Shown piece after piece: positions 7,810 through 32,536 of a DNA stretch of 36,143 nucleotides (position 1 is the stretch's first letter; each line of letters opens with the position of its first letter). This stretch comes from Candidatus Bipolaricaulota bacterium (lineage in GTDB: Bacteria; Bipolaricaulota; Bipolaricaulia; Bipolaricaulales; Bipolaricaulaceae). The position numbers and the translations under genes were made by a program. Below the pieces are notes generated by a model. It searched no databases. It was not told the DNA's origin and saw only the letters and a program-made list of their open reading frames with translations. The stretch is taken from the NCBI GenBank assembly GCA_026418075.1, contig JAOACA010000009.1, forward strand, positions 1-36,143, written 5' to 3'.

Positions 7810-8928
7810 GTGCGGCTTCTGGAGTGGCAAGGTCGAGAGATCCTGGCGAAGGCGGGGATCCCGGTTCCCCGGGGCGGGGTGGCGCGGACTCCAGCCGAGG
7901 CCCGGGTGGCCGCGGAGGGGGCGGGGGGACCGGTGGTCCTCAAGGCCCAGGTCCCCGTGGGGGGACGGGGGAAGGCCGGGGGGATCCGCCCCGCCCGGGA
8001 CCCCCACGAGGCCGAGGTGGTCGCAAAGGAGATGCTCGGCACGGAGCTCAAGGGCCTCCCGATCGAGGCCCTCCTCGTTGTGGAGAGGGTGGAGGCCCAA
8101 GAGGAGCACTACCTCTCCGTGACCCTCGACCGCCGGACCCGGTCGCCGGTGATGATCTACTCCCCGAAAGGGGGCGTGGACATCGAGGAGGTGGCCCGGA
8201 CGGACCCCGGGGCGATCCGCCAGGTGCACATCCCCCCGCTGGAGGGCCCACTCCCGTTCCGGCTGCGGGCCCTGGTGTCCCTCGCCCGGCCCGAGCTCCG
8301 CAAGCCCCTCGCCGAGATCGCCGGCAAGCTCTACGACGTCTTCGTCCGCTACGAGGCGAACCTCGCCGAGATCAACCCCCTTGCCCTCACCGCGGGCGGG
8401 CTCGTGGCCCTGGATGCGAAGCTGATCCTCGACGACGACCACCGCCCCGGGGAGCAGTTCGCCGGCCTTGCTGAAGCCGTGGTCGATCCCCTGGAGGCGG
8501 AGGCCAAGGCGGCGGGGATGAGCTACGTGCGCCTGGAGGGCGACATCGGGATCCTTGGAAACGGGGCGGGCCTTGTGATGGCCACCCTCGACCTTGTGGC
8601 CCAGGCCGGGGGCCGGCCCGCTAACTTCCTCGACATCGGGGGCGGGGCCCGGGCGGAGCGGGTCCGCAAAGGGGTCGAGCTCATCCTCAAGGACGGAAGA
8701 GCCAAGGTCCTGTTCGTCAACGTGTTCGGGGGGATCACCCGCTGCGACGAGGTCGCCCACGGGGTCGTGGAGGCAACGAAGGGACTGGGGCTTCCCACGG
8801 TCATCCGCCTGGCGGGGACGAACGAGGCCGAGGGCCGGGCGGTCCTCGCCCGGGCCGGGCTTGTCCCGGTGCGGACGATGGAGGAAGGGGCGGCCCGGGC
8901 CGTGGCCCTGGCCAAGGAGGCCCGATGA
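7810..8928 (+). CDS. sucC: Succinyl-CoA ligase (ADP-forming) beta-subunit-like ATP-grasp protein
   Basis: MRLLEWQGREILAKAGIPVPRGGVARTPAEA...VVLKAQVPVGGRGKAGGI...YEANLAEINPLALT...LVALDAKLILDDDH...GNGAGLVMATLDLVAQAGGRPANFLDIGGGA...FVNVFGGITRCDEVAHGVV; GTG start with AAAGGAGG ribosome-binding site. Confidence 0.92.
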   Translation: MRLLEWQGREILAKAGIPVPRGGVARTPAEARVAAEGAGGPVVLKAQVPVGGRGKAGGIRPARDPHEAEVVAKEMLGTELKGLPIEALLVVERVEAQEEHYLSVTLDRRTRSPVMIYSPKGGVDIEEVARTDPGAIRQVHIPPLEGPLPFRLRALVSLARPELRKPLAEIAGKLYDVFVRYEANLAEINPLALTAGGLVALDAKLILDDDHRPGEQFAGLAEAVVDPLEAEAKAAGMSYVRLEGDIGILGNGAGLVMATLDLVAQAGGRPANFLDIGGGARAERVRKGVELILKDGRAKVLFVNVFGGITRCDEVAHGVVEATKGLGLPTVIRLAGTNEAEGRAVLARAGLVPVRTMEEGAARAVALAKEAR

Positions 8929-10637
8929 GGTGCGCGCTGGCGTTGGCCATCGTGGGAATGGGGGTCGCCGCCCTGGCGACGGACGTCCTCCCCCTGGCCG
9001 AGGTCCGGCCGGGGATGCGGGGCCACGGGCTGACCGTGGTCGCGGGGACGGAGATCGAACGGTTCGAGGTTGAGGTGGTGGCGGTCCTCGACGAGCCGGG
9101 GGAGAGGGGGGACTTCATCGTGGTCCGGGTCTCCGGCCCGGCGATCACCCGCTCAGGGGGAGTGGCCCAGGGGATGTCGGGGAGCCCGATCTACCTCGAC
9201 GGGAAGCTTGCGGGGGCCCTGTCGCGGGCCGCGCCGTGGTCCGCGGATCGGGACCGGCCCCTTGCCCTCGTGACCCCGATCGAGGCCATGCTCCAGGTCC
9301 TGGCCGAGGTCGCTCCCCCTCCGGGGGAGCCGCGCCCTGGGGACGGCCCCCGGGCTGAGGAGCCCATCCTTCCCGAACTTTTCCTCTCTAGTCCGATCAT
9401 GGCGAGCGGCCTTTCGGCCCGGGCTCTCGCCGTCCTCGAGCGGGGCTTCGACCTCCGCCGGACCGGGCACCCGCTTTCGGACCTCCTCCCCCCCTGGCGG
9501 ACGGGGATCCCGGGGCTTCTCGACCTTGGGGTCCCGCGGGTGGCCGCCGCGCCGTCCGGGGGAGGGGGGCCGGCCCTGGACCTCGTCCCCGGCGCCCCGG
9601 TGGGGGTGGGGCTCGCGGTGGGGGACGTGACCATCGGGGCCCTGGGCACGGTGACCCTTGTCCGGGACAACGCCGTCCTCGCCTTCGGGCACCCGTTCCT
9701 GTTCACCGGGGCGAGCCGGTACTTCCTCACCGGGGCCCACGTCCTGGACACGGTGGCGGCCTACGACTTCTCGTACAAGTTCGGGACGATGGGGGAGGTG
9801 CGGGGCGGGGTGTTCGCCGACCGCTGGGCCGCGGTGGCAGGAATCGTCGGCAGGACGCCGGCTGGGATCGCGACACGCCTCACTGTCCGTGACCTCTCGC
9901 GGGGGGCGGAGCGGGTCCTCCAGGCCCGGCTCGTCGAGGAGCCGCGGCTCGCCGCGCTCCTCCTCTACGTCGCCGCCCTGGAGGCGGTGGACCAGGCCCT
10001 GGACCGGATCGGCCCTGGGACGGCCACGGTGAGGTACACCCTCACGGGGCGGGGGCTCCCTCGCCCCCTCACCCGGGAGAACGTCTTCCTCTCCACCGAG
10101 GACATCGCCCTCCTGGTGCCGTGGGAGCTCGCCCTCATCGCCGACGTTCTCGCGTACAACGAGTTCGCCGATCCCGGGTTCCTTTCGGTGGCCCTCGAGG
10201 CCGCTGTAACCCCGGGGTTCTCCGCCGCCGAGGTCGTCTCCCTCAAAACGGAGCGGGAGAGCTACGCCCCGGGGGACCGGGTCCGGTTCGAGGTCGCCCT
10301 GCGCCGGTGGCGGGGGGGAACCGAAGTGTGGGGAGGGTGGCTGCGGATCCCCTCCGACCTCGCCTCCCCCTACGTTGAACTCCGGGCCTACGGGGGGCCC
10401 CGCCCCCGGGAGAAGGGGGAGGAGCCCCCAACCTTGAACTCCATCGGGGACCTCGTCCGCTACATCGAGGGGATCCCCACCTACGACACCCTGACCGTGG
10501 AGCTCTTTGCCCTCGATCCCCTGTCCGAGGTTGTGAGGGAGAGGTGGCTCTACGGGGTGGACGGGGCGGCGGACCGGATCCCCGGGGTTCGGGTGTACGG
10601 GGAGGTCCGGGTGGTCCTTCCGCTGAAGGGAAAGTAG
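8925..10637 (+). CDS. SpoIVB-like peptidase S55 domain protein, exported
   Basis: Signal peptide MRCALALAIVGMGVAALA; S55 motif SGGVAQGMSGSPIYLDGKLAGAL; ATGA overlap with the upstream gene. Confidence 0.8.
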   Translation: MRCALALAIVGMGVAALATDVLPLAEVRPGMRGHGLTVVAGTEIERFEVEVVAVLDEPGERGDFIVVRVSGPAITRSGGVAQGMSGSPIYLDGKLAGALSRAAPWSADRDRPLALVTPIEAMLQVLAEVAPPPGEPRPGDGPRAEEPILPELFLSSPIMASGLSARALAVLERGFDLRRTGHPLSDLLPPWRTGIPGLLDLGVPRVAAAPSGGGGPALDLVPGAPVGVGLAVGDVTIGALGTVTLVRDNAVLAFGHPFLFTGASRYFLTGAHVLDTVAAYDFSYKFGTMGEVRGGVFADRWAAVAGIVGRTPAGIATRLTVRDLSRGAERVLQARLVEEPRLAALLLYVAALEAVDQALDRIGPGTATVRYTLTGRGLPRPLTRENVFLSTEDIALLVPWELALIADVLAYNEFADPGFLSVALEAAVTPGFSAAEVVSLKTERESYAPGDRVRFEVALRRWRGGTEVWGGWLRIPSDLASPYVELRAYGGPRPREKGEEPPTLNSIGDLVRYIEGIPTYDTLTVELFALDPLSEVVRERWLYGVDGAADRIPGVRVYGEVRVVLPLKGK

Positions 10638-22498: not shown

Positions 22499-23779
22499 AT
22501 GCACATCTCCGTCGAGGGCCTCCCCGCCGTGGGCAAGTCCGAGGTCCTCGCCCTCCTCCGCCTCTACTACCCCGACCAGGTCCTCGTCCTCCCCGAGCTC
22601 GTGAAGGAGGTCGCCGAGCGGGAGGGCCTCGACCTCTTCCGCGATCGGGCTCGGCTCGGGGCGGCGCTTTGGGAGGCGCTTCCGGGCCGAGAGGAGGCGA
22701 TCCGCGCGGCCCGCGCGGCGGGCAAGTTGGTCCTCGAAGAATCCCACCTCGGGGTCCACGCCGCCTACGCCGCGGCCCTGGGGGACGAGAGGTTCCTCGC
22801 CCAGTTCCGGGAGCGGGAAGGGGAACTCCCCTGGCCGGACCGGTTCATCCGCCTGGGGGCCTCGATCCCAGTGTCCACCGCCCGCCAGAGGGCGCGGGGG
22901 GATCCCCGGTACACCGTGCCCGCGGACGTCCTTGCGCGCATGCTCTCCGTCCTCGACCACTGGCACGCCCGCCGCCGAAGCGACCTCCGCGTCCTCGACG
23001 CCGATCGCCCCCCGGCCGCGGTGGTGGCCGACCTCGCCGCGGAGGCAGGCCTCACCTACCGGACACCCTCCCCGGGCCCGGTCCTCCCCTACCTCCTCCT
23101 CCTGGGGCGCCCGGCCTCCGGGAAATCCGAGCTCATCCAGTTCCTCCGCGGGCTTCCCCCGGAGGAGCGGGCCCAGGCGTACCACCTCGGGGCGCTGCGG
23201 ATCGCGGACGACTTCCCCATCCTGTGGCAGCTGTTTCGGGAGGACGACCTGTGGGAGCGGGTGGGCCGGGGGCGGCTCCACTCCCGCCGCGCCGGGGAAA
23301 ACTACGCCGTGGCCGGCGACCACGTGTGGCCGTTCCTCACCCTCCGCCTGGTGGAGGGGCTCGCCCAACGCCCGGCCGGAGAGGGGGAAACGGTGATCGT
23401 CGAGTTCGCCCGCGGTGGCCCGACCGCGTACCGCGACGCTCTCTCGCTCTTCTCATCCGAGATCTTGGAACAGGCGGCGATCCTCTACCTCGACGTCCCG
23501 TTTGCGGAATCCTGGCGGCGGAACCTCGCCCGGTACGACCGGGCCCGCCGAGACGGAATCCTCACCCACTCCGTCCCCCGGGAGGAGATGGAGCGGACGT
23601 ACGCGGCCGACGACTGGCCCACCCTGGCCCCCAACCCAGAAGGCCACCTGGCGATCGCAGGGGTCCGCGTCCCCTACGTGACCGTCCCCAACGTCCCCGA
23701 GCCGATCGCCCCCGCGGACTTCGCCCGCCGCTTCCAGCCCGCCTTCGCGGCCCTGTGGGGCCTCCACCAGGCCCGCTAG
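22499..23779 (+). CDS. Tandem P-loop nucleotide kinase-like protein (two Walker A motifs)
   Basis: MHISVEGLPAVGKSEVLALLRLYYPDQVLVLPELVKEV... and PVLPYLLLLGRPASGKSELIQFLRGLPPEERAQAYHLG...; starts 8 nt after the tRNA-Val 3' end. Confidence 0.8.
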   Translation: MHISVEGLPAVGKSEVLALLRLYYPDQVLVLPELVKEVAEREGLDLFRDRARLGAALWEALPGREEAIRAARAAGKLVLEESHLGVHAAYAAALGDERFLAQFREREGELPWPDRFIRLGASIPVSTARQRARGDPRYTVPADVLARMLSVLDHWHARRRSDLRVLDADRPPAAVVADLAAEAGLTYRTPSPGPVLPYLLLLGRPASGKSELIQFLRGLPPEERAQAYHLGALRIADDFPILWQLFREDDLWERVGRGRLHSRRAGENYAVAGDHVWPFLTLRLVEGLAQRPAGEGETVIVEFARGGPTAYRDALSLFSSEILEQAAILYLDVPFAESWRRNLARYDRARRDGILTHSVPREEMERTYAADDWPTLAPNPEGHLAIAGVRVPYVTVPNVPEPIAPADFARRFQPAFAALWGLHQAR

Positions 23780-25254
23780 AGGTACCCCAGCCGCACCCCC
23801 ACGATCATCCCAACCCCGATCACGACCATCACCAGCCCGGTCGTGAAGTGGAGGGTCCCAAGCTTGGCCTGCCGCCACCGCTCCGCCCGGGCCGTGGTCG
23901 TGAGCCCAAAGTGGACAAGGAGCGTGATCCCGATCATCGGGAGGATGAAGATGAAGTTGTAGAGGAGGAGCCACAGCGCCCCTTGGACCCGGGTCGTGGT
24001 CTGGGAAAGGAGGGTCAGGATCACAATGTAGGGGCCGGAGGTGCACGGGGCAAGGAACAGGGAGTCGACAAGGCCAATCACAAACGCGCCTGGGATCGAG
24101 ACGACGGACGCGGTGATCCTCTTCACCGACGGCTTCCACCGCTCGGGAACCTCGATCGAGAACCACTTCCCGTGCCAGAGGAGGTCCTTCATCTCCCACA
24201 GCCCGACGAGGATCGCCAGCGACGACACGGCGTAGATGAAGGGTTCCCGGAACGAGCGGGTCCCCACGGTGACCCCGAGGAGCGAGTAGAGGAGGAAGCC
24301 CATCGCGAAGTAGGCGAGGAAGATCCCGGCGGCGAAGGCGAGCCCGGCCCAGATCACCTTGACCCGCTTTCCCACCACGAGGAGGGTCCCGAGGAGCAGG
24401 ACGAGGACCGCGAAGTCGCAGGGGTTGATCGAGTCGAGGGCGGCCCCGAGGACCACCGCACCGAAGGTGAGCTGTTCCCGCAGGCGAAGCCGCTCCAGGG
24501 GCGGGGTGGCCTTCGTCTCCACTGCCCGCGCGATGGCGCCCTCCAGGGCAGCGGTTCCCTCCGGGGTAGCCAGGGGCCGGGGCGGCTGGCGGGGGAGGAA
24601 GACCGTCCCCCCCACGAGCGCGGCGTCCCCCACAAACAGGGCGGGAAGCTCCCCCCGGGCCCCATAGAGGCGCCGGAGCTTCTCCAGGGTGGCGGCTCCC
24701 TCCGGGGTCGCGGGGTCCAGGCGGCGGATCCCGAGGGCGGGGAACCGCTCGACCCACCGGACCAGGAGCGCCTCGAGGACCGGACAGTCGGGGCAATCGG
24801 CCTCCGGCATGAACAGGACCGCCTCGGTCGCCGTGGGAGGAAGCCTCACGAGGGGCGAAGGGGCGCGGGCGGCCACAGCCTGGCGGATCGCGTCCTCCAA
24901 GGTGAGCTCCTGGGCCAGGCCGCTCCGGACCACGGGAGCCGGTCCCAGCCCGTAGAACGTGTCCCCAACCATCGCCACGTCCCCCACGAACACCATCGGG
25001 ACCGGCCCCAGCCGGGCCCCGTAGGCCGAAAGGAGGCGCTGGAGGAGGCTCCAGGCCTCCGCGGCGTGGATCTCGTAGCGCTGAACCCGAAACTCCAGGC
25101 CTGTCCGCTGAAGGTCCCCGAGGAACGCCTCGACCTGCTTGCAGTGGAGGCAGCCGGCGTCGTAGAAAAAGAGGACCTCGACACCCTGCCCTGCCGCGGC
25201 CCCGCCAAGGACAAGCCCCCCGATCAGCCCAATCGCCCAACGTCGGATCGTCAT
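23776..25254 (-). CDS. Exported double thioredoxin-like domains fused to CcdA/DsbD-like transmembrane domain
   Basis: Signal peptide MTIRRWAIGLIGGLVLGGAAAG; FFYDAGCLHCKQVEAFL and FMPEADCPDCPVLEALL; TM region with DSINPCDFAVLVLLLGTLL and DSLFLAPCTSGPYIVIL. Confidence 0.85.
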   Translation of the reverse strand: MTIRRWAIGLIGGLVLGGAAAGQGVEVLFFYDAGCLHCKQVEAFLGDLQRTGLEFRVQRYEIHAAEAWSLLQRLLSAYGARLGPVPMVFVGDVAMVGDTFYGLGPAPVVRSGLAQELTLEDAIRQAVAARAPSPLVRLPPTATEAVLFMPEADCPDCPVLEALLVRWVERFPALGIRRLDPATPEGAATLEKLRRLYGARGELPALFVGDAALVGGTVFLPRQPPRPLATPEGTAALEGAIARAVETKATPPLERLRLREQLTFGAVVLGAALDSINPCDFAVLVLLLGTLLVVGKRVKVIWAGLAFAAGIFLAYFAMGFLLYSLLGVTVGTRSFREPFIYAVSSLAILVGLWEMKDLLWHGKWFSIEVPERWKPSVKRITASVVSIPGAFVIGLVDSLFLAPCTSGPYIVILTLLSQTTTRVQGALWLLLYNFIFILPMIGITLLVHFGLTTTARAERWRQAKLGTLHFTTGLVMVVIGVGMIVGVRLGYL

Positions 25255-25661
25255 CTTCCTCCCTCCACGAACCGGCTGATGATCCACCCCCACAGCTCAT
25301 CCCTCACCCTGCGGAACGCCTCCACGGTCCCCTCGGCGGCGGGATCGGCGAACGGGACGTGCTCCTGGACACCCGCCCCGGGGAAGAAGGGACAGCTCTC
25401 CGCCTCGTCCCCGCACAGGGTCACGACAAGGTCGAACTTCTGCCCAAGGAGCTCCCGCACGTCCTTCGCCCGGTGGCCCGAGATGTCCACCCCCCGCTCG
25501 GCGAGGACGGCCACGGCCAGGGGGTGGACCGCCGTGGGCCGGCTCCCGGCGCTCGCCACCTCGTACCGGTCCCCGGCGAGGTGGCGGAGGATCCCCTCCG
25601 CCATTTGGGATCGGGCGGAGTTGTGGACGCACAGGAACAGAACACGCGTCTTGGCCGTCAC
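25251..25661 (-). CDS. arsC: Arsenate reductase, thioredoxin-coupled LMW-PTP fold
   Basis: VTAKTRVLFLCVHNSARSQMAEGILRHLAGDRYEVASAGSRPTAVHPLAVAVLAERGVDISGHRAKDV...VVTLCGDEAESCPFFPGAG; CX5R plus the resolving Cys pair. Confidence 0.93.
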   Translation of the reverse strand: MTAKTRVLFLCVHNSARSQMAEGILRHLAGDRYEVASAGSRPTAVHPLAVAVLAERGVDISGHRAKDVRELLGQKFDLVVTLCGDEAESCPFFPGAGVQEHVPFADPAAEGTVEAFRRVRDELWGWIISRFVEGGR

Positions 25662-26116
25662 TTCCCAAGGAGGAGGAACACCACGGCCCCCACGACGAGG
25701 ATGAGGACGATCTCCAGCGGGCTCAGGACCCGGCGGAGCTTCCCCGGGAGGCGCTCCAAGGGGGAGGGGCACCCCGCAGTCCGGCAGCGGACAACCTCCT
25801 CCTCAATCTGAAGCTCCACCGCGAGCCCAACCCCGGTCACGGCGAGGTTCCCCACAAACACGGTGGGGGTCACCTCCTTCGTGAGCCCGTAGGCCTTCCC
25901 CAACGTGACCATAAGCCGCCAGTTGTCCGGGTTGAACGTGACCTCGTGGGCCACGACCTTGAGCTCGGGGTAGGTCTTCTGGAGCTCGGCCAGGTAGGCC
26001 TTCATCACGAGGCAGTCCGGGCAGGTCGCGGACCAGAAGTAGTGGAGCTCGACCTCCGCCCCCGCCACCCCCACCGCGGCGAGACCAAGGAACAGCATAA
26101 GCAACCGCCAACGCAT
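25658..26116 (-). CDS. Exported thioredoxin-like protein with C-terminal membrane anchor
   Basis: [62 protein letters not shown]...VTPTVFVGNLAVTG...LSPLEIVLILVVGAVVFLLLGK. Confidence 0.85.
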   Translation of the reverse strand: MRWRLLMLFLGLAAVGVAGAEVELHYFWSATCPDCLVMKAYLAELQKTYPELKVVAHEVTFNPDNWRLMVTLGKAYGLTKEVTPTVFVGNLAVTGVGLAVELQIEEEVVRCRTAGCPSPLERLPGKLRRVLSPLEIVLILVVGAVVFLLLGK

Positions 26117-27243
26117 CACGCCACCTCCTGGACCGGGCGCGCCGGGAACCAGTCCCGCGTCCGCAGGCACACCCGGACGAGCATGAGCATCACCGGGACC
26201 TCGATGAGGACCCCCACCACCGTGGCCAGGGCCGCCCCCGAGGAGAGCCCGTAGAGCATCGTCGCCGTGGCGATCGCCACCTCGAAGTGGTTCGAGGCCC
26301 CGATCATCGCCGACGGCGCCGCGTCCTCGTACCGGAACCGAAGCGCCCGGGCCAGGGCGTAGGTGAGGCCGAAGATGAGCCAGGTCTGCAGGAAGAGCGG
26401 GATCGCAATCCACAGGATGGTGAGCGGGTTCTGAACGATCGTCTCCCCCTTGAACGTGAACAGGAGCACCAGGGTGAGAAGAAGGGCGATCACCGCCACC
26501 GGGGTGAGCCAGGGGACAAACCGCCGCTGAAACCCCTCCTCCCCCATCCGCCCCACCACGAGGCGCCGGGTGGCGTACCCGGCCACAAGGGGAAGCGCGA
26601 CGTAGATCGCGATCGAGAGGAGGAGCGCCTGCCAGGGCACCGGCATCCGGTTGATCCCGAGGAGGAACTTGCCCAGGGGCCCGTAGAGGACGAGCATGGT
26701 GAGGGAGTTGATCGCCACCATGACCAGGGTGTGGCCCTGGTTTCCCCGGGCGAGGAACCCCCACACGAGGACCATCGCCGTGCACGGGGCAATCCCAAGG
26801 AGGATCGCCCCCGAGATGTAGGATCGGAAGAGCTCGACCTGCGTTCCATCCTTGACGACCTCAACCCCTGGGAGGAGGGGGCGGAACAGGACCCCCAGGA
26901 ACAGGGTGGCGATCCCCAGCATCGTGAACGGCTTGATCCCCCAGTTCACGATCAGGGTGAGGAGGACGGGTTTGAGGTTCTTTCCCGCCCGGAGGACCTC
27001 CGCAAAGTCGATCTTGACCATGATCGGGTACATCATGAAGAACAGGGCGACGGCGATGGGGATGGAGACGACCGGTGCCCCCCCCACGTAGATCGCAAGC
27101 CCATCGAGGAACCGTGCCGCCCCCGGGGCCACCCGCCCGAGGAGGATCCCCGCCCCGATGCAGAGGAGGACCCACAGGGGGAGGTACCGCTCAAAGGCTC
27201 CCAGGCCCGGGGCAGACCGGGCCTGGGATCGGTGCGCTCTCAT
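26116..27243 (-). CDS. arsB: ACR3-family arsenite efflux transporter
   Basis: [33 protein letters not shown]...[45 protein letters not shown]...[20 protein letters not shown]...[17 protein letters not shown]. Confidence 0.93.
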
Positions 27244-27246
27244 CGT

Positions 27247-28317
27247 CTACCGGGCCGGGTAGAGCAGGGTATCCCCGTACGAGGCCCGCCAGCCGGCGAT
27301 CCCGCCGAGGAGCGCCCGGGCCTTGGGGAACCCCAGGCCCTGGAGGTACTGGGCGATCGCGGGGGCGCGGGAGCCGTCCTCATCCACGATCCACAGGGCA
27401 AGCTGGGTTCCGGAGATGGGGCGGGGAAGGGTCGCCGCCCAGGCGGCGATCTCCTCCTGGGTCGCGAGCCGAACGTTCACCGCGCCGGGGAACCGCCCCT
27501 GGGCGTAGGCCTCCGGGGAGCGGATGTCCACGATATAGAGGAAGTTCTGGGCGACCCGGGTGACGTCAATCGTGGCAAACGTCCCGTAGTAGGGGGAACC
27601 AACGGGAGGGGTCCGCGGAGCCCCGGGGGCCCACTCAAAGAACAGGTCCCCGTAGAGCTGCCACCACCGGGCAAGCCCGCCGCTGAACGCCCGCATCAGG
27701 CTGAACCCCTGCTGCTGGAGCAGCTGTGCGGCCTGGACTGCCTGGATCCCCGTCTCATCGTAGAGGTAGATCACCCGATCCCGCGGCAGTTCCCCCAACC
27801 GAGCCGCCAGGTCGGCGAACGGGATGCTCAAGGCCCCCAGGAGGTGGCCCTGGGCGTAGGCCGCAGCCGGACGGAGGTCCACGAGAACGTAGAACTCATC
27901 GTGGAGCGTCTTGGCCGTCCCCTCGTAGGGGTAGATCGCGCGCACCGTGCCCCGGATCCACACCGTGATCCGCGGCCGCTGGGGGTCGCCCGACTCCACC
28001 GTCACCGAGGTCCCGGTGGGCTGGGAATAGCGGCTGTAGTTGGTGGTATCGAACCGAATTGCCACCGCCACGCTCTCCCCCGGGAGAAGCCGGTTGCGGG
28101 GGAGGGGGGCAGTCGTGCACCCACAGCTCGGCGTGACCTTGAGGTTCTCCAACGGGGCATCCCCCGCGTTTTGGATGACCAGGTTGAACTGGACCACGTA
28201 GCCGTCGATCACGGTCCCGAAGTCGTACGTCTCCGGGGTGACGACTATCCGCGGGGCTCCCAGCCCCACGATGCCCAAGACCATCAGCCCGATCAGAACG
28301 CCCACACTGGACTTCAT
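27247..28317 (-). CDS. Exported DUF1573 domain plus two rhodanese-like domains
   Basis: MKSSVGVLIGLMVLGIVGLGAPRIVVTPETYDFGTVIDGYVVQFNLVIQNAGDAPLENLKVTPSCGCTTAPL...; rhodanese segments VLVDLRPAAAYAQGHLLGALSIPF and IVDIRSPEAYAQGRFPGAVNVRL; ATG 28317 preceded by GAGGACGAG. Confidence 0.85.
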   Translation of the reverse strand: MKSSVGVLIGLMVLGIVGLGAPRIVVTPETYDFGTVIDGYVVQFNLVIQNAGDAPLENLKVTPSCGCTTAPLPRNRLLPGESVAVAIRFDTTNYSRYSQPTGTSVTVESGDPQRPRITVWIRGTVRAIYPYEGTAKTLHDEFYVLVDLRPAAAYAQGHLLGALSIPFADLAARLGELPRDRVIYLYDETGIQAVQAAQLLQQQGFSLMRAFSGGLARWWQLYGDLFFEWAPGAPRTPPVGSPYYGTFATIDVTRVAQNFLYIVDIRSPEAYAQGRFPGAVNVRLATQEEIAAWAATLPRPISGTQLALWIVDEDGSRAPAIAQYLQGLGFPKARALLGGIAGWRASYGDTLLYPAR

Positions 28318-29491: not shown

Positions 29492-29613
29492 CCTCCAAAC
29501 AAACGGAGAGGGAGAAGGCCGTGGTGGGAGGGACGCTGCACGTCTTAGCCAAACCTTTCGGAGACAAGCGGCTGGCGGGAAGGCGTGGGCCTGGGAACGT
29601 CCGCGCGTCCGGG

Positions 29614-29687
<74 letters not shown>

Positions 29688-29696
29688 GCAAAAGGG

Positions 29697-29725
29697 ATCA
29701 TAGCCCCCGGCCGCGCGGCCCTCAA
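29697..29725 (-). promoter_or_regulatory. Promoter of tRNA-Ile
   Basis: Reverse strand TTGAGG-17 nt-TATGAT, 9 nt before the tRNA. Confidence 0.65.
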
Positions 29726-29743
29726 CGGCGACCAGGGACGTGG

Positions 29744-29817
29744 TGGAGGCGAGCGGGTTCGAACCGCCGACCCCCGGCTTGCAAAGCCGGTGCTCTCCCA
29801 AGCTGAGCTACGCCCCC
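29744..29817 (-). tRNA. tRNA-Ala (TGC anticodon)
   Basis: GGGGGCGTAGCTCAGCTTGGGAGAGCACCGGCTTTGCAAGCCGGGGGTCGGCGGTTCGAACCCGCTCGCCTCCA; loop TTTGCAA. Confidence 0.96.
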
Positions 29818-29910: not shown

Positions 29911-31074
29911 ATGGCCGCGCTCACGATCGAGGAGATCCCCCTCGGGGACCGGCGGCTGCGGGACTTCGTCGCCGTCCCGTGGCGGATCCACCGCGGGGAC
30001 CCCCACTGGACCCCGCCCCTCCGGGGCGACCTCCTCGGAAGCCGGATCCTCGGGCTCACCGGGCTCCTCACCCCCGCCCACCCCTACCACGAAACAGCCG
30101 AGGTGACCCACTTCGTGGCCCGGAAGGGCCGGAAGCTCCTCGGGCGGGTCTCGGCCGCCGTCAACCACCGGTTCAACGCCCACCACCGGACGAACCTCGG
30201 GTTCTTTGGGCTGTTCGAAGCCGTCCCCGACTACGGGGTAGCCGAGGGCCTTCTCGACAGCGCCCGGGCGTGGCTGGCCCGGCGGGGGGCCGAGGCGATG
30301 CGCGGCCCGGGCGGCTACTCCACCGCCACCCACGAGTCCCACCAGGGGATCCTCGTCCACGGGTTCGACACCCCCCCCACCGTGGAGCTCACCCACAACC
30401 CCCCCTACTACGGGGAGTTCCTCGAACGGTACGGCCTGCGGAAGGCCAAGGACTACCACGCGTACTGGTTCACCCCCTCCGGAGCTCCCGACCCGCGGTT
30501 GATCCGCCTGGTGGAGGGGGCGCGCACCCGCCGGGGGATCACCACCCGGCCTCTGGACATGGGGCGCCTGGAGGAGGAGGTGGGGCTCATGGTGGCGATC
30601 TACAACGAGGCGTGGGCGGAGAACTGGGGGTTCCTCCCCATCACGGAAGGGGAGGCCCACGCCCTCGCCCGAAGCTTGAGGGTCATCGCCGACCCTGACC
30701 TCATCCGGTTCGCCTACGTGGAAGGGGAGGTCGCGGCCATGATCGGGGCGATCCCCGACCCCAACGTCCTCCTCCGCCCGCGGTGGAACCCCCTCCTCGA
30801 CCTCGACCTCGTCCGGGCCGGGCGCCTCCTCCTCTTCCGCCGGCGGATCCGCACCGGGCGGATCATGTTCTTCGGGATCCGCCCCCCCTACCGCCGGCTT
30901 GGCGTGGACGCGGTCCTCTTCCACGAGGTCCTCACCCTGGGCTGGGCCAAGGGGTACCGAGGGGGCGAGGGGTCCATGCTTCTTGAGGACAACGAGCTCA
31001 TCCTCCGGGCGTGCGAGGCGATGGGGGGGAAGCGGTACAAGACGTGGCGGATCTACGAGATGCCCATCGGCTAG
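29911..31074 (+). CDS. GNAT-superfamily-like acyltransferase (about 387 aa)
   Basis: MAALTIEEIPLGDRRLRDFVAVPWRIHRGDPHWTPPLRGD...YNEAWAENWGFLPITEGEAHALARSLRVIADPDLIRFAYVEGEVAAMIGAIPDPN...FFGIRPPYRRLGVDAVLFHEVLTLGWAKGYRGGEGSMLLEDNELI. Confidence 0.7.
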   Translation: MAALTIEEIPLGDRRLRDFVAVPWRIHRGDPHWTPPLRGDLLGSRILGLTGLLTPAHPYHETAEVTHFVARKGRKLLGRVSAAVNHRFNAHHRTNLGFFGLFEAVPDYGVAEGLLDSARAWLARRGAEAMRGPGGYSTATHESHQGILVHGFDTPPTVELTHNPPYYGEFLERYGLRKAKDYHAYWFTPSGAPDPRLIRLVEGARTRRGITTRPLDMGRLEEEVGLMVAIYNEAWAENWGFLPITEGEAHALARSLRVIADPDLIRFAYVEGEVAAMIGAIPDPNVLLRPRWNPLLDLDLVRAGRLLLFRRRIRTGRIMFFGIRPPYRRLGVDAVLFHEVLTLGWAKGYRGGEGSMLLEDNELILRACEAMGGKRYKTWRIYEMPIG

Positions 31075-31075
31075 C

Positions 31076-31081
31076 TATAAT
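31076..31081 (+). promoter_or_regulatory. TATAAT -10 box of the ATP-cone kinase gene, leaderless geometry
   Basis: TATAAT followed by 6 nt and GTG start at 31088; located 1 nt after the upstream stop codon. Confidence 0.55.
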
Positions 31082-31087
31082 CCGCCC

Positions 31088-32536
31088 GTGGCCGTCCAAA
31101 ACCGAATTCGAAAGGTTCGGAAACGGGACCGGTCCCTGGTCCCGTTCGATCAGGGGCGGATCGTCCACGCCATCCTCCGCGCCGCCCGCTCGGTGGGCGG
31201 GTTTGCCCCCGACCACCTCCCCGGGGTGAACGACCGGATCTTCTCCTGCGGGGACGACGAACACATCGCGGAGTTCCTGTCCGACGTCGTCGTCGCCACC
31301 CTCAACCGCGACCCCCGGCACTGGATCGCCAACTTCCCCCCGGAGATCGAGGAGATCCAGGACACGGTGATCCACGTGCTCCGGAGCTTCGGGTTCGTGA
31401 CTGTGGCCGACGCCTACGAATGCTGGCGGTGGGGGCGGCACTGGGTCCGGGCGGGAGCCCTCACCCCCGAGCAGTTCGTGGGAAACGGCTACCCCACCCC
31501 CCTCCACGAGGAAACCCTGGCCTGGAACCGGGCCCACGGCTGCGACACCGTGGAGGGGCTGAACGCCCTCGTCCGCGCCGGCAAGCTCCCCGAGCTCGTG
31601 GCCGCGGCCACGGACCGCTACGAGCGGGCAATCGACGAGGCAGCGCGGAAGGTCCTCGCGCGGGCCGAGACGGGCCTGCGGATGATCTGGGTCACGGGCC
31701 CCTCTTCCTCAGGGAAAACGACGACCACGGTCAAGCTCCTCCAGCGCCTGGAGCGGGAGGGGATGGAGTTCCTCATGCTCAACCTCGACGACTACTTCTG
31801 GCCCCTGGTGGAGCACCCCACGGACTGGCTCAACGACCGGAACTTCGAGACCCCGGAGGCCCTGGACATCCAGGGGATCAACCGCCACCTCCGGGCCCTC
31901 CTGGAGGGCCAGACGATCGCCAAGCCCATCTACAGCTTCAAGGAGGGCCGCCACGTGGGGTCAAAGCCCGTCCGCCTGCGGAAGGGCCAGTACCTCCTCC
32001 TCGACTGCCTCCACGGCCTCTATCCCCCCCTCACCGCCGGGATTGACCGGGAGGCGATGTTCTTCCTCTACATCGAGGCGGCGAACATGCTCTACGAGGG
32101 GGACGGGACGAGCGAGCGGCTGACCCAGTTCACCGACGTGCGGCTCCTGAGGCGGATGCTCCGGGACGCCAAGCACCGGAACCACCCCCCCCTCCAGACC
32201 CTCCTCCACTGGCACTACGTCCGGTCCGGGGAGCTTTTCTCCATCATCCCCCTCCTCGGCCGGGCCGACCACGTGGTCAACGGGGGGATGCCGTTTGACC
32301 TCCCCCTCCTCAAGCCGTTCTTCGTCCCCGACGGGATCTGGCCCAAACCCGACGAGGTCGCCCCCTACGACCCGTTCCTCGATGCCCGGATCCGCTACCG
32401 GAGGATCACCGCCCTTCTCGGGGCGATCGCCGGCCTCACCCTGTGGGAGGCCGAGGACCACGCCCTCATCCCCGGGGACCACCTCGTGCGGGAGTTCATC
32501 GGGGGGAGCACGCTCCGGATCCCCCACAACGAATAG
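31088..32536 (+). CDS. ATP-cone domain fused to uridine kinase/phosphoribulokinase-like P-loop kinase
   Basis: VAVQNRIRKVRKRDRSLVPFDQGRIVHAILRAARSVGG (ATP-cone-like); MIWVTGPSSSGKTTTTVKLLQRLEREGMEFLMLNLDDYFWPLVEHPTDWLNDRNFETPEALDIQGINRHLRALLEG...YLLLDCLHGLYP. Confidence 0.85.
   Translation: MAVQNRIRKVRKRDRSLVPFDQGRIVHAILRAARSVGGFAPDHLPGVNDRIFSCGDDEHIAEFLSDVVVATLNRDPRHWIANFPPEIEEIQDTVIHVLRSFGFVTVADAYECWRWGRHWVRAGALTPEQFVGNGYPTPLHEETLAWNRAHGCDTVEGLNALVRAGKLPELVAAATDRYERAIDEAARKVLARAETGLRMIWVTGPSSSGKTTTTVKLLQRLEREGMEFLMLNLDDYFWPLVEHPTDWLNDRNFETPEALDIQGINRHLRALLEGQTIAKPIYSFKEGRHVGSKPVRLRKGQYLLLDCLHGLYPPLTAGIDREAMFFLYIEAANMLYEGDGTSERLTQFTDVRLLRRMLRDAKHRNHPPLQTLLHWHYVRSGELFSIIPLLGRADHVVNGGMPFDLPLLKPFFVPDGIWPKPDEVAPYDPFLDARIRYRRITALLGAIAGLTLWEAEDHALIPGDHLVREFIGGSTLRIPHNE

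What the first reader, a model, noticed from the sequence alone, without database searches (positions are those of the whole stretch)
27247..28317. Exported DUF1573 protein carrying two rhodanese domains that both lack the catalytic Cys
Where active rhodaneses have C-x-x-G-x-R, the two domains read LYDETGIQA and IVDEDGSRA: Asp-containing loops and no Cys. The DUF1573 SCGCT motif is intact. The rhodaneses probably bind rather than transfer sulfur, perhaps acting as a scaffold for the adjacent thioredoxins.
Basis: partly seen in the sequence, partly recalled or inferred. Interest (0 to 1): 0.6.

Follow-up and report, generated by a model that had tools for sequence, protein, structure and literature searches.

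The report
Secreted redox protein with two pseudo-rhodaneses
An exported bacterial protein joins a cysteine-pair (CGC) redox domain to two sulfur-transferase-fold domains whose catalytic cysteine is replaced by a strictly conserved aspartate, and it is encoded next to membrane thiol-reductant genes; dead rhodaneses of this kind are already known, but this fusion and its partners seem to be undescribed.

Summary
Window 27247-28317(-) encodes 356 aa: a signal-like N-terminus, a DUF1573 domain with an intact CGC, and two genuine rhodanese folds (Pfam; AlphaFold2 pLDDT 94). Both catalytic positions are Asp (D187, D312). This is neither sequencing error nor decay: none of the 11 same-genus orthologs has a Cys there, D187 is Asp in all 71 aligned full-length homologs with a residue, and D312 in 67 of 74. 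The only Cys-bearing homologs (four domains) also keep the G-x-R signature. Asp at this position is a published alternative ((C/D)x4/5(R/T)), found in E. coli SseA's N-domain, P. aeruginosa 1yt8 and plant TROL; inactive rhodaneses are regarded as protein-interaction modules. The gene leads a packed operon: ACR3 arsenite efflux, thioredoxin-TM protein, ArsC, and a double-thioredoxin/CcdA-like membrane reductase. Half of 106 homologs (many on short contigs) have the reductase just downstream; arsenic genes are found at fewer. Best reading: an extracytoplasmic thiol-redox protein whose only redox site is CGC, reduced by the neighbouring reductase, with the rhodaneses non-catalytic. The thioredoxin link rests on gene order; physical binding is untested. 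Arsenic is a lineage-specific add-on.

The parts
27247..28317 (-). DUF1573-rhodanese-rhodanese protein, 356 aa, exported (ATG 28317, GGAGG RBS)
28255..28317 (-). signal-peptide-like N-terminus (residues 1-21), no lipobox Cys
   Evidence: hydropathy and low-confidence N-terminal helix in the model; cleavage inferred
27943..28242 (-). DUF1573 / HYDIN-type Ig-like (ASH/PapD-like) domain
   Evidence: also NCBIfam OS_HP2 (seleno)protein 66 bits, below its cut-off of 100
28117..28125 (-). CGC motif (C65, C67), the only cysteines of the protein; C65 invariant 74/74, C67 73/74
27661..27912 (-). rhodanese domain 1, catalytic Cys replaced by D187
27739..27759 (-). loop DETGIQA (D187-A193)
27283..27540 (-). 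rhodanese domain 2, catalytic Cys replaced by D312
27364..27384 (-). loop DEDGSRA (D312-A318)
26116..27243 (-). ACR3 arsenite efflux permease (accessory; starts 3 bp after the stop of the DUF1573-rhodanese gene)
   Evidence: TIGR00832 367 bits, cut-off 283
25658..26116 (-). exported thioredoxin-like protein, CPDC, with C-terminal transmembrane helix
   Evidence: neighbour in many relatives
25251..25661 (-). ArsC-like low-molecular-weight-phosphatase-fold arsenate reductase (CVHNSARS ... CGDEAESC); GTG start overlapping the previous stop is inferred
   Evidence: TIGR02691 101 bits (cut-off 174)
23776..25254 (-). two thioredoxin-like domains (CLHC, CPDC) fused to a CcdA/DsbD-type membrane domain with invariant NPC (C279) and PC (C404)

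Best explanation
An exported, non-sulfurtransferase redox protein. The DUF1573 CGC pair is the only redox or thiol site; it is kept reduced by, or exchanges disulfides with, the thioredoxin domains of the neighbouring CcdA/DsbD-like membrane reductase, either directly or through the thioredoxin-TM protein. The two rhodanese domains are catalytically dead, with Asp taking the place of the thiolate in the anion-binding loop, and serve as structural or docking modules. In this lineage the module has been joined to arsenic detoxification genes (ACR3, ArsC). Shown here: anatomy, Cys loss, Asp conservation, operon and gene linkage. Inferred: export, redox function of CGC, electron flow, docking.
For: Pfam, fold and model. 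D187 is Asp in all 71 full-length homologs with a residue there (71 of 74; 3 gaps), and D312 in 67/74, with GAT/GAC synonymous variation. C65 invariant. All four Cys-bearing domains keep G-x-R, while Arg is at C+5 in only 5/99 (domain 1) and 13/69 (domain 2) of the Asp forms, so loss of Cys and loss of the active-site signature go together. 53 of 106 homologs have the DsbD-like gene within 4.5 kb downstream on the same strand, and its CxxC and NPC/PC cysteines are invariant. C319/C335 are present or absent together (30 of 31), as expected for a disulfide in an oxidising compartment. DUF1573 is listed among selenoprotein families with motif UGC (PMC9312934, PMC13188914), which points to a redox Cys.
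Against: No biochemical data on DUF1573. Conserved rhodanese positions are generic to the fold. 43 of 106 homologs have none of these neighbours, some because contigs end. No model of the complex. Signal peptide judged by hydropathy only.
Confidence: 0.55

Rival explanations
1. The Asp loops are not just dead: they form an acidic ligand or metal/metalloid binding site, and the CGC binds As(III) or another thiophilic metal, making the protein an extracytoplasmic metalloid chaperone for the ACR3/ArsC cassette.
For: ACR3 and/or ArsC lie beside the gene in the genus and in some other genera; CxC can bind soft metals (general knowledge); Asp retained for more than fold reasons would explain its invariance.
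Against: Many homologs with a reductase neighbour have no arsenic genes nearby (18 reductase only, 14 reductase + thioredoxin, against 21 with ACR3 and/or ArsC), so arsenic cannot be the core function; no other conserved acidic or Cys/His cluster was seen.
Confidence: 0.15
2. The protein handles sulfane sulfur: the DUF1573 Cys carries a persulfide, and the Asp-rhodaneses bind the donor without transferring, like the inactive N-domain of tandem sulfurtransferases.
For: Inactive rhodanese domains line the active site of tandem sulfurtransferases (PMC10135228); some class relatives keep a Cys rhodanese in the same architecture (L061, L099, L113, L129).
Against: No active partner rhodanese: these are the only rhodanese domains found in the ~86% complete genome. 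Foldseek superposes whole tandem sulfurtransferases poorly (rmsd ~19, TM 0.22), suggesting a different domain arrangement.
Confidence: 0.13
3. Purely structural: the rhodanese domains are spacers or stabilisers with no partner; linkage to the reductase reflects the DUF1573 domain alone.
For: Only generic fold positions are conserved; members with a single rhodanese domain also sit beside the reductase (e.g. L054, L110, L111).
Against: Asp187 is kept without exception over 28-80% identity; at least one rhodanese domain is retained in every homolog collected (partly a selection effect of the query).
Confidence: 0.15
4. A rhodanese-fold (Acr2/Cdc25-type) arsenate reductase or phosphatase linked to ACR3.
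For: Arsenate reduction by rhodanese-fold enzymes is known (PMC10135228), and the gene is next to ACR3.
Against: Those enzymes need Cx5R; Cys is absent from both domains and the protein appears exported, while the operon has its own ArsC-like protein.
Confidence: 0.02

Closest known systems
Catalytically inactive rhodanese domains fused to other domains (class 4 of PMC10135228), e.g. plant TROL
   Same: Asp in place of the catalytic Cys; exported or lumenal; linked to redox partners (TROL: Asp replaces Cys207, FNR docking; PMC12295754)
   Different: Two such domains on a DUF1573 CGC domain; the partner genes are thioredoxin/CcdA-type, not ferredoxin-NADP reductase
N-terminal non-catalytic domain of tandem sulfurtransferases (E. 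coli SseA, LIVYDEGN)
   Same: YD at the catalytic position in an inactive rhodanese repeat
   Different: No active C-terminal domain with Cys; whole-chain superposition on tandem enzymes is poor
P. aeruginosa multi-rhodanese protein 1yt8
   Same: Loop LVLVDDDGVRA, nearly the same as IVDEDGSRA
   Different: Matched over its rhodanese region only; cellular location and partners not examined
DUF1573 / OS_HP2 (seleno)proteins
   Same: Ig-like domain with (C/U)GC
   Different: OS_HP2 score is below its cut-off; no rhodanese repeat in that 98-position model
DsbD / CcdA / ScsB periplasmic reductant pathways
   Same: Membrane domain with the NPC/PC cysteine pair plus thioredoxin domains, encoded next to their presumed client
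   Different: Presumed client is a DUF1573-pseudo-rhodanese; reductase carries two N-terminal thioredoxin domains in this genus

Membership tests
Rhodanese fold (PF00581) | Score above the curated cut-off and fold match | tested here: met
   101.8 bits vs 22.2 for the whole protein; both domains above cut-off singly; Foldseek hits to rhodaneses
Active sulfurtransferase / TST / MST | Cys in the Cx4R/T or Cx5R loop after the beta strand | tested here: not met
   D187 and D312 in the window; Asp in nearly all homologs
Inactive rhodanese, class 4 of PMC10135228 | No Cys in the loop; fused to an unrelated domain | tested here: met
Inactive rhodanese acting as protein-interaction module | Demonstrated partner binding | not testable with these tools
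   Only single-chain prediction available; gene linkage only
DUF1573 (PF07610) | Score above cut-off; C-x-C motif | tested here: met
   54.3 vs 26.1 bits; C65 and C67 near-invariant
OS_HP2 (seleno)protein NF041425 | Score above 100 bits | tested here: not met
   66.3 bits; 72 of 74 members match at E<=1e-10, so related only
ACR3 (neighbour) | TIGR00832 equivalog cut-off | tested here: met
   367.2 vs 282.8 bits
ArsC thioredoxin type (neighbour) | TIGR02691 cut-off and three catalytic Cys | tested here: inconclusive
   101 bits vs 174 cut-off, but CVHNSARS and C-x6-C cysteines are present
DsbD/CcdA-type reductase (neighbour) | Membrane domain with two conserved Cys, plus thioredoxin domains | tested here: met
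   C279, C404, C35, C38 invariant in 45 homologs; DsbD_TM 25.9 bits, just below the 27.1 cut-off in the window protein, above it in L060
Acr2/Cdc25 arsenate reductase | HCx5R | tested here: not met

The most novel reading that the evidence does not exclude
A clade-wide extracytoplasmic redox system in which a DUF1573 CGC protein is the client or output of a CcdA/thioredoxin reductant relay, using tandem Asp-rhodaneses as dedicated docking modules. This would give DUF1573 a first defined biochemical role and an example of a rhodanese repurposed as a thioredoxin adaptor.
Probability: 0.3. Interest if true: 0.55.

Novelty: new variant of a known kind. Interest (0 to 1): 0.34.

Why it matters
DUF1573 has no assigned function, and only three papers in the open-access library searched mention it. 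Frequent linkage of its CGC motif with a membrane reductant relay, plus a listed UGC selenoprotein form, makes a concrete redox hypothesis testable. The natural contrast between Asp-rhodanese and a few Cys-rhodanese members in one class could show how a sulfurtransferase fold is turned into a non-catalytic module. The Cys-to-Asp change itself is ordinary.

Tried and rejected
Sequencing error or recent decay: rejected, because Asp is universal in the genus and nearly so in the class. Rhodanese-fold arsenate reductase: rejected, no Cys. Arsenic as the core function: rejected as general, since many homologs have the reductase without ACR3 or ArsC. Plasmids: only rhodanese-like hits, none covering 80% of the query. 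Distances in the AlphaFold model could not be measured because coordinates were not provided. No test of whether Cys-bearing members differ in gene context: only four, some on truncated contigs.

Full report
What is there. The gene at 27247-28317(-) starts with ATG at 28317 behind GGAGG and encodes 356 aa. Pfam gives DUF1573 (54.3 bits) and two Rhodanese stretches (101.8 bits together). AlphaFold2 on 74 homologs gives pLDDT 94.1 and pTM 0.83. Foldseek matches the rhodanese part to rhodaneses (6mxv, 1yt8, 1e0c) and the DUF1573 part to ASH/PapD-like domains and to the P. gingivalis protein 2qsv. The N-terminus looks like a Sec signal peptide (K, then a hydrophobic run to GLGA); this is an inference from hydropathy, and no lipobox Cys is present.

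The missing cysteine. D187 (LYDETGIQA) and D312 (IVDEDGSRA) sit at the catalytic position. The protein's only cysteines are C65 and C67 of SCGCT. In the full-length alignment of 74 proteins (28-80% identical to the window protein), D187 is Asp in 71 with 3 gaps, and D312 is Asp in 67, Ser in 4, Gly in 2 and Cys in 1 (L061). With single-rhodanese members added (107 rows, one probably a near-duplicate), domain 1 has D 99, C 3, gap 5. D187 ranks with the DxR and GG..W fold residues as having zero entropy, and its codons vary synonymously (GAT 21, GAC 50), so the Asp is maintained by selection. The four Cys-bearing domains (L061 domain 2; L099, L113 and L129 domain 1) all keep G-x-R and look catalytically competent; Arg at C+5 occurs in only 5 of 99 (domain 1) and 13 of 69 (domain 2) Asp forms. 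The window's own second domain is one of those that keep the Arg. The three domain-1 Cys forms make one clade (support 1.0) beside an Asp form; direction of change was not resolved. A caveat: six homologs have Cys at 186, one residue before the Asp (e.g. YVCDEAGE), and 26 have Cys at 310, two before; neither lies in the loop position in the alignment used.

How unusual is Asp? Not very. A review defines the loop motif as (C/D)x4/5(R/T), calls Cys-less domains inactive, and treats them as protein-interaction mediators (PMC10135228). The inactive N-domain of E. coli SseA reads LIVYDEGN; P. aeruginosa 1yt8 has LVLVDDDGVRA; TROL has Asp for Cys207 and is tied to FNR docking (PMC12295754). In M. 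tuberculosis SseA the non-catalytic N-domain is reported to bind SufE (PMC12375888).

The redox site. C65 is invariant and C67 is 73/74. The DUF1573 part is related to NCBIfam OS_HP2 (seleno)protein (66 bits, below the 100-bit cut-off), and two reviews list a DUF1573 selenoprotein with motif UGC. By the usual Sec/Cys argument this points to a redox-active pair; that CXC disulfides can act as oxidoreductase sites is general knowledge, not tested here. Other cysteines come in pairs: C319/C335 (30 of 31 together) and C43/C88 (3 of 3), which fits structural disulfides in an oxidising compartment. The window protein and five close relatives lack C319/C335.

Gene context. Downstream and almost overlapping are ACR3 (TIGR00832 above cut-off), a thioredoxin-like protein with CPDC and a C-terminal transmembrane helix, an ArsC-like protein, and a protein with two thioredoxin-like domains (CLHC, CPDC) and a CcdA/DsbD-type membrane domain. 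The last has C35, C38, C279 (NPC) and C404 (PC) invariant in 45 homologs; its profile hits glutaredoxin, thioredoxin and a copper-sensitivity-suppression protein in the PDB, and its model resembles PDI/PDO-type tandem thioredoxins at weak E-values. Of 106 distinct homologs, 53 have this reductase on the same strand within 4.5 kb downstream: 18 with the reductase alone, 14 with the reductase plus the thioredoxin-TM gene, and 21 that also have ACR3 and/or ArsC. The core partnership is therefore with the thiol-reductant relay and the arsenic genes are an addition. In the ~86% complete genome these are the only rhodanese domains found.

Mechanism. Most likely the protein is an extracytoplasmic thiol-redox client or adaptor: electrons from cytoplasmic thioredoxin cross the membrane through the CcdA-like domain, pass to its thioredoxin domains, and reach the DUF1573 CGC; the Asp-rhodaneses are non-catalytic. 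I think Asp acts as a fixed anion in the loop where a thiolate or persulfide would sit (inference). Whether the rhodaneses dock the thioredoxins is open: their conserved residues are fold-generic, and single-rhodanese members also sit beside the reductase. The final substrate is unknown; arsenic is plausible only for the lineages with ACR3/ArsC.

Novelty. The Cys-to-Asp rhodanese is known. The fusion with DUF1573 and the operon with a CcdA/thioredoxin relay were not found in the literature searched. Spread outside this phylum was not measured.

Noticed in passing
window 29612-29817(-): tRNA-Ile(GAT) and tRNA-Ala(TGC) lie side by side without any rRNA in the window; this pair normally sits in the 16S-23S spacer.
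   Followed up: no
window 23776-25254(-): Membrane reductase with two N-terminal thioredoxin-like domains; in many relatives the second domain's CxxC or the whole second domain is missing.
   Followed up: partly
L061:1148-2245, L099:1021-1719, L113:7805-8296, L129:3492-4190: DUF1573-rhodanese relatives that keep an apparently active Cys/Arg rhodanese loop; three of them form one clade among the Asp forms.
   Followed up: partly
L044, L048, L049, L050, L051: A paralogous DUF1573-rhodanese group with Cys one residue before the Asp (YVCDEAGE) and none of the window's partner genes nearby.
   Followed up: partly
window 30899-32536(+): Fusion of an ATP-cone domain with a uridine kinase/phosphoribulokinase-like domain.
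   Followed up: no
window 8925-10637(+): 570-aa protein with a partial match to SpoIVB peptidase S55 (45 bits) just before a Mur ligase gene.
   Followed up: no
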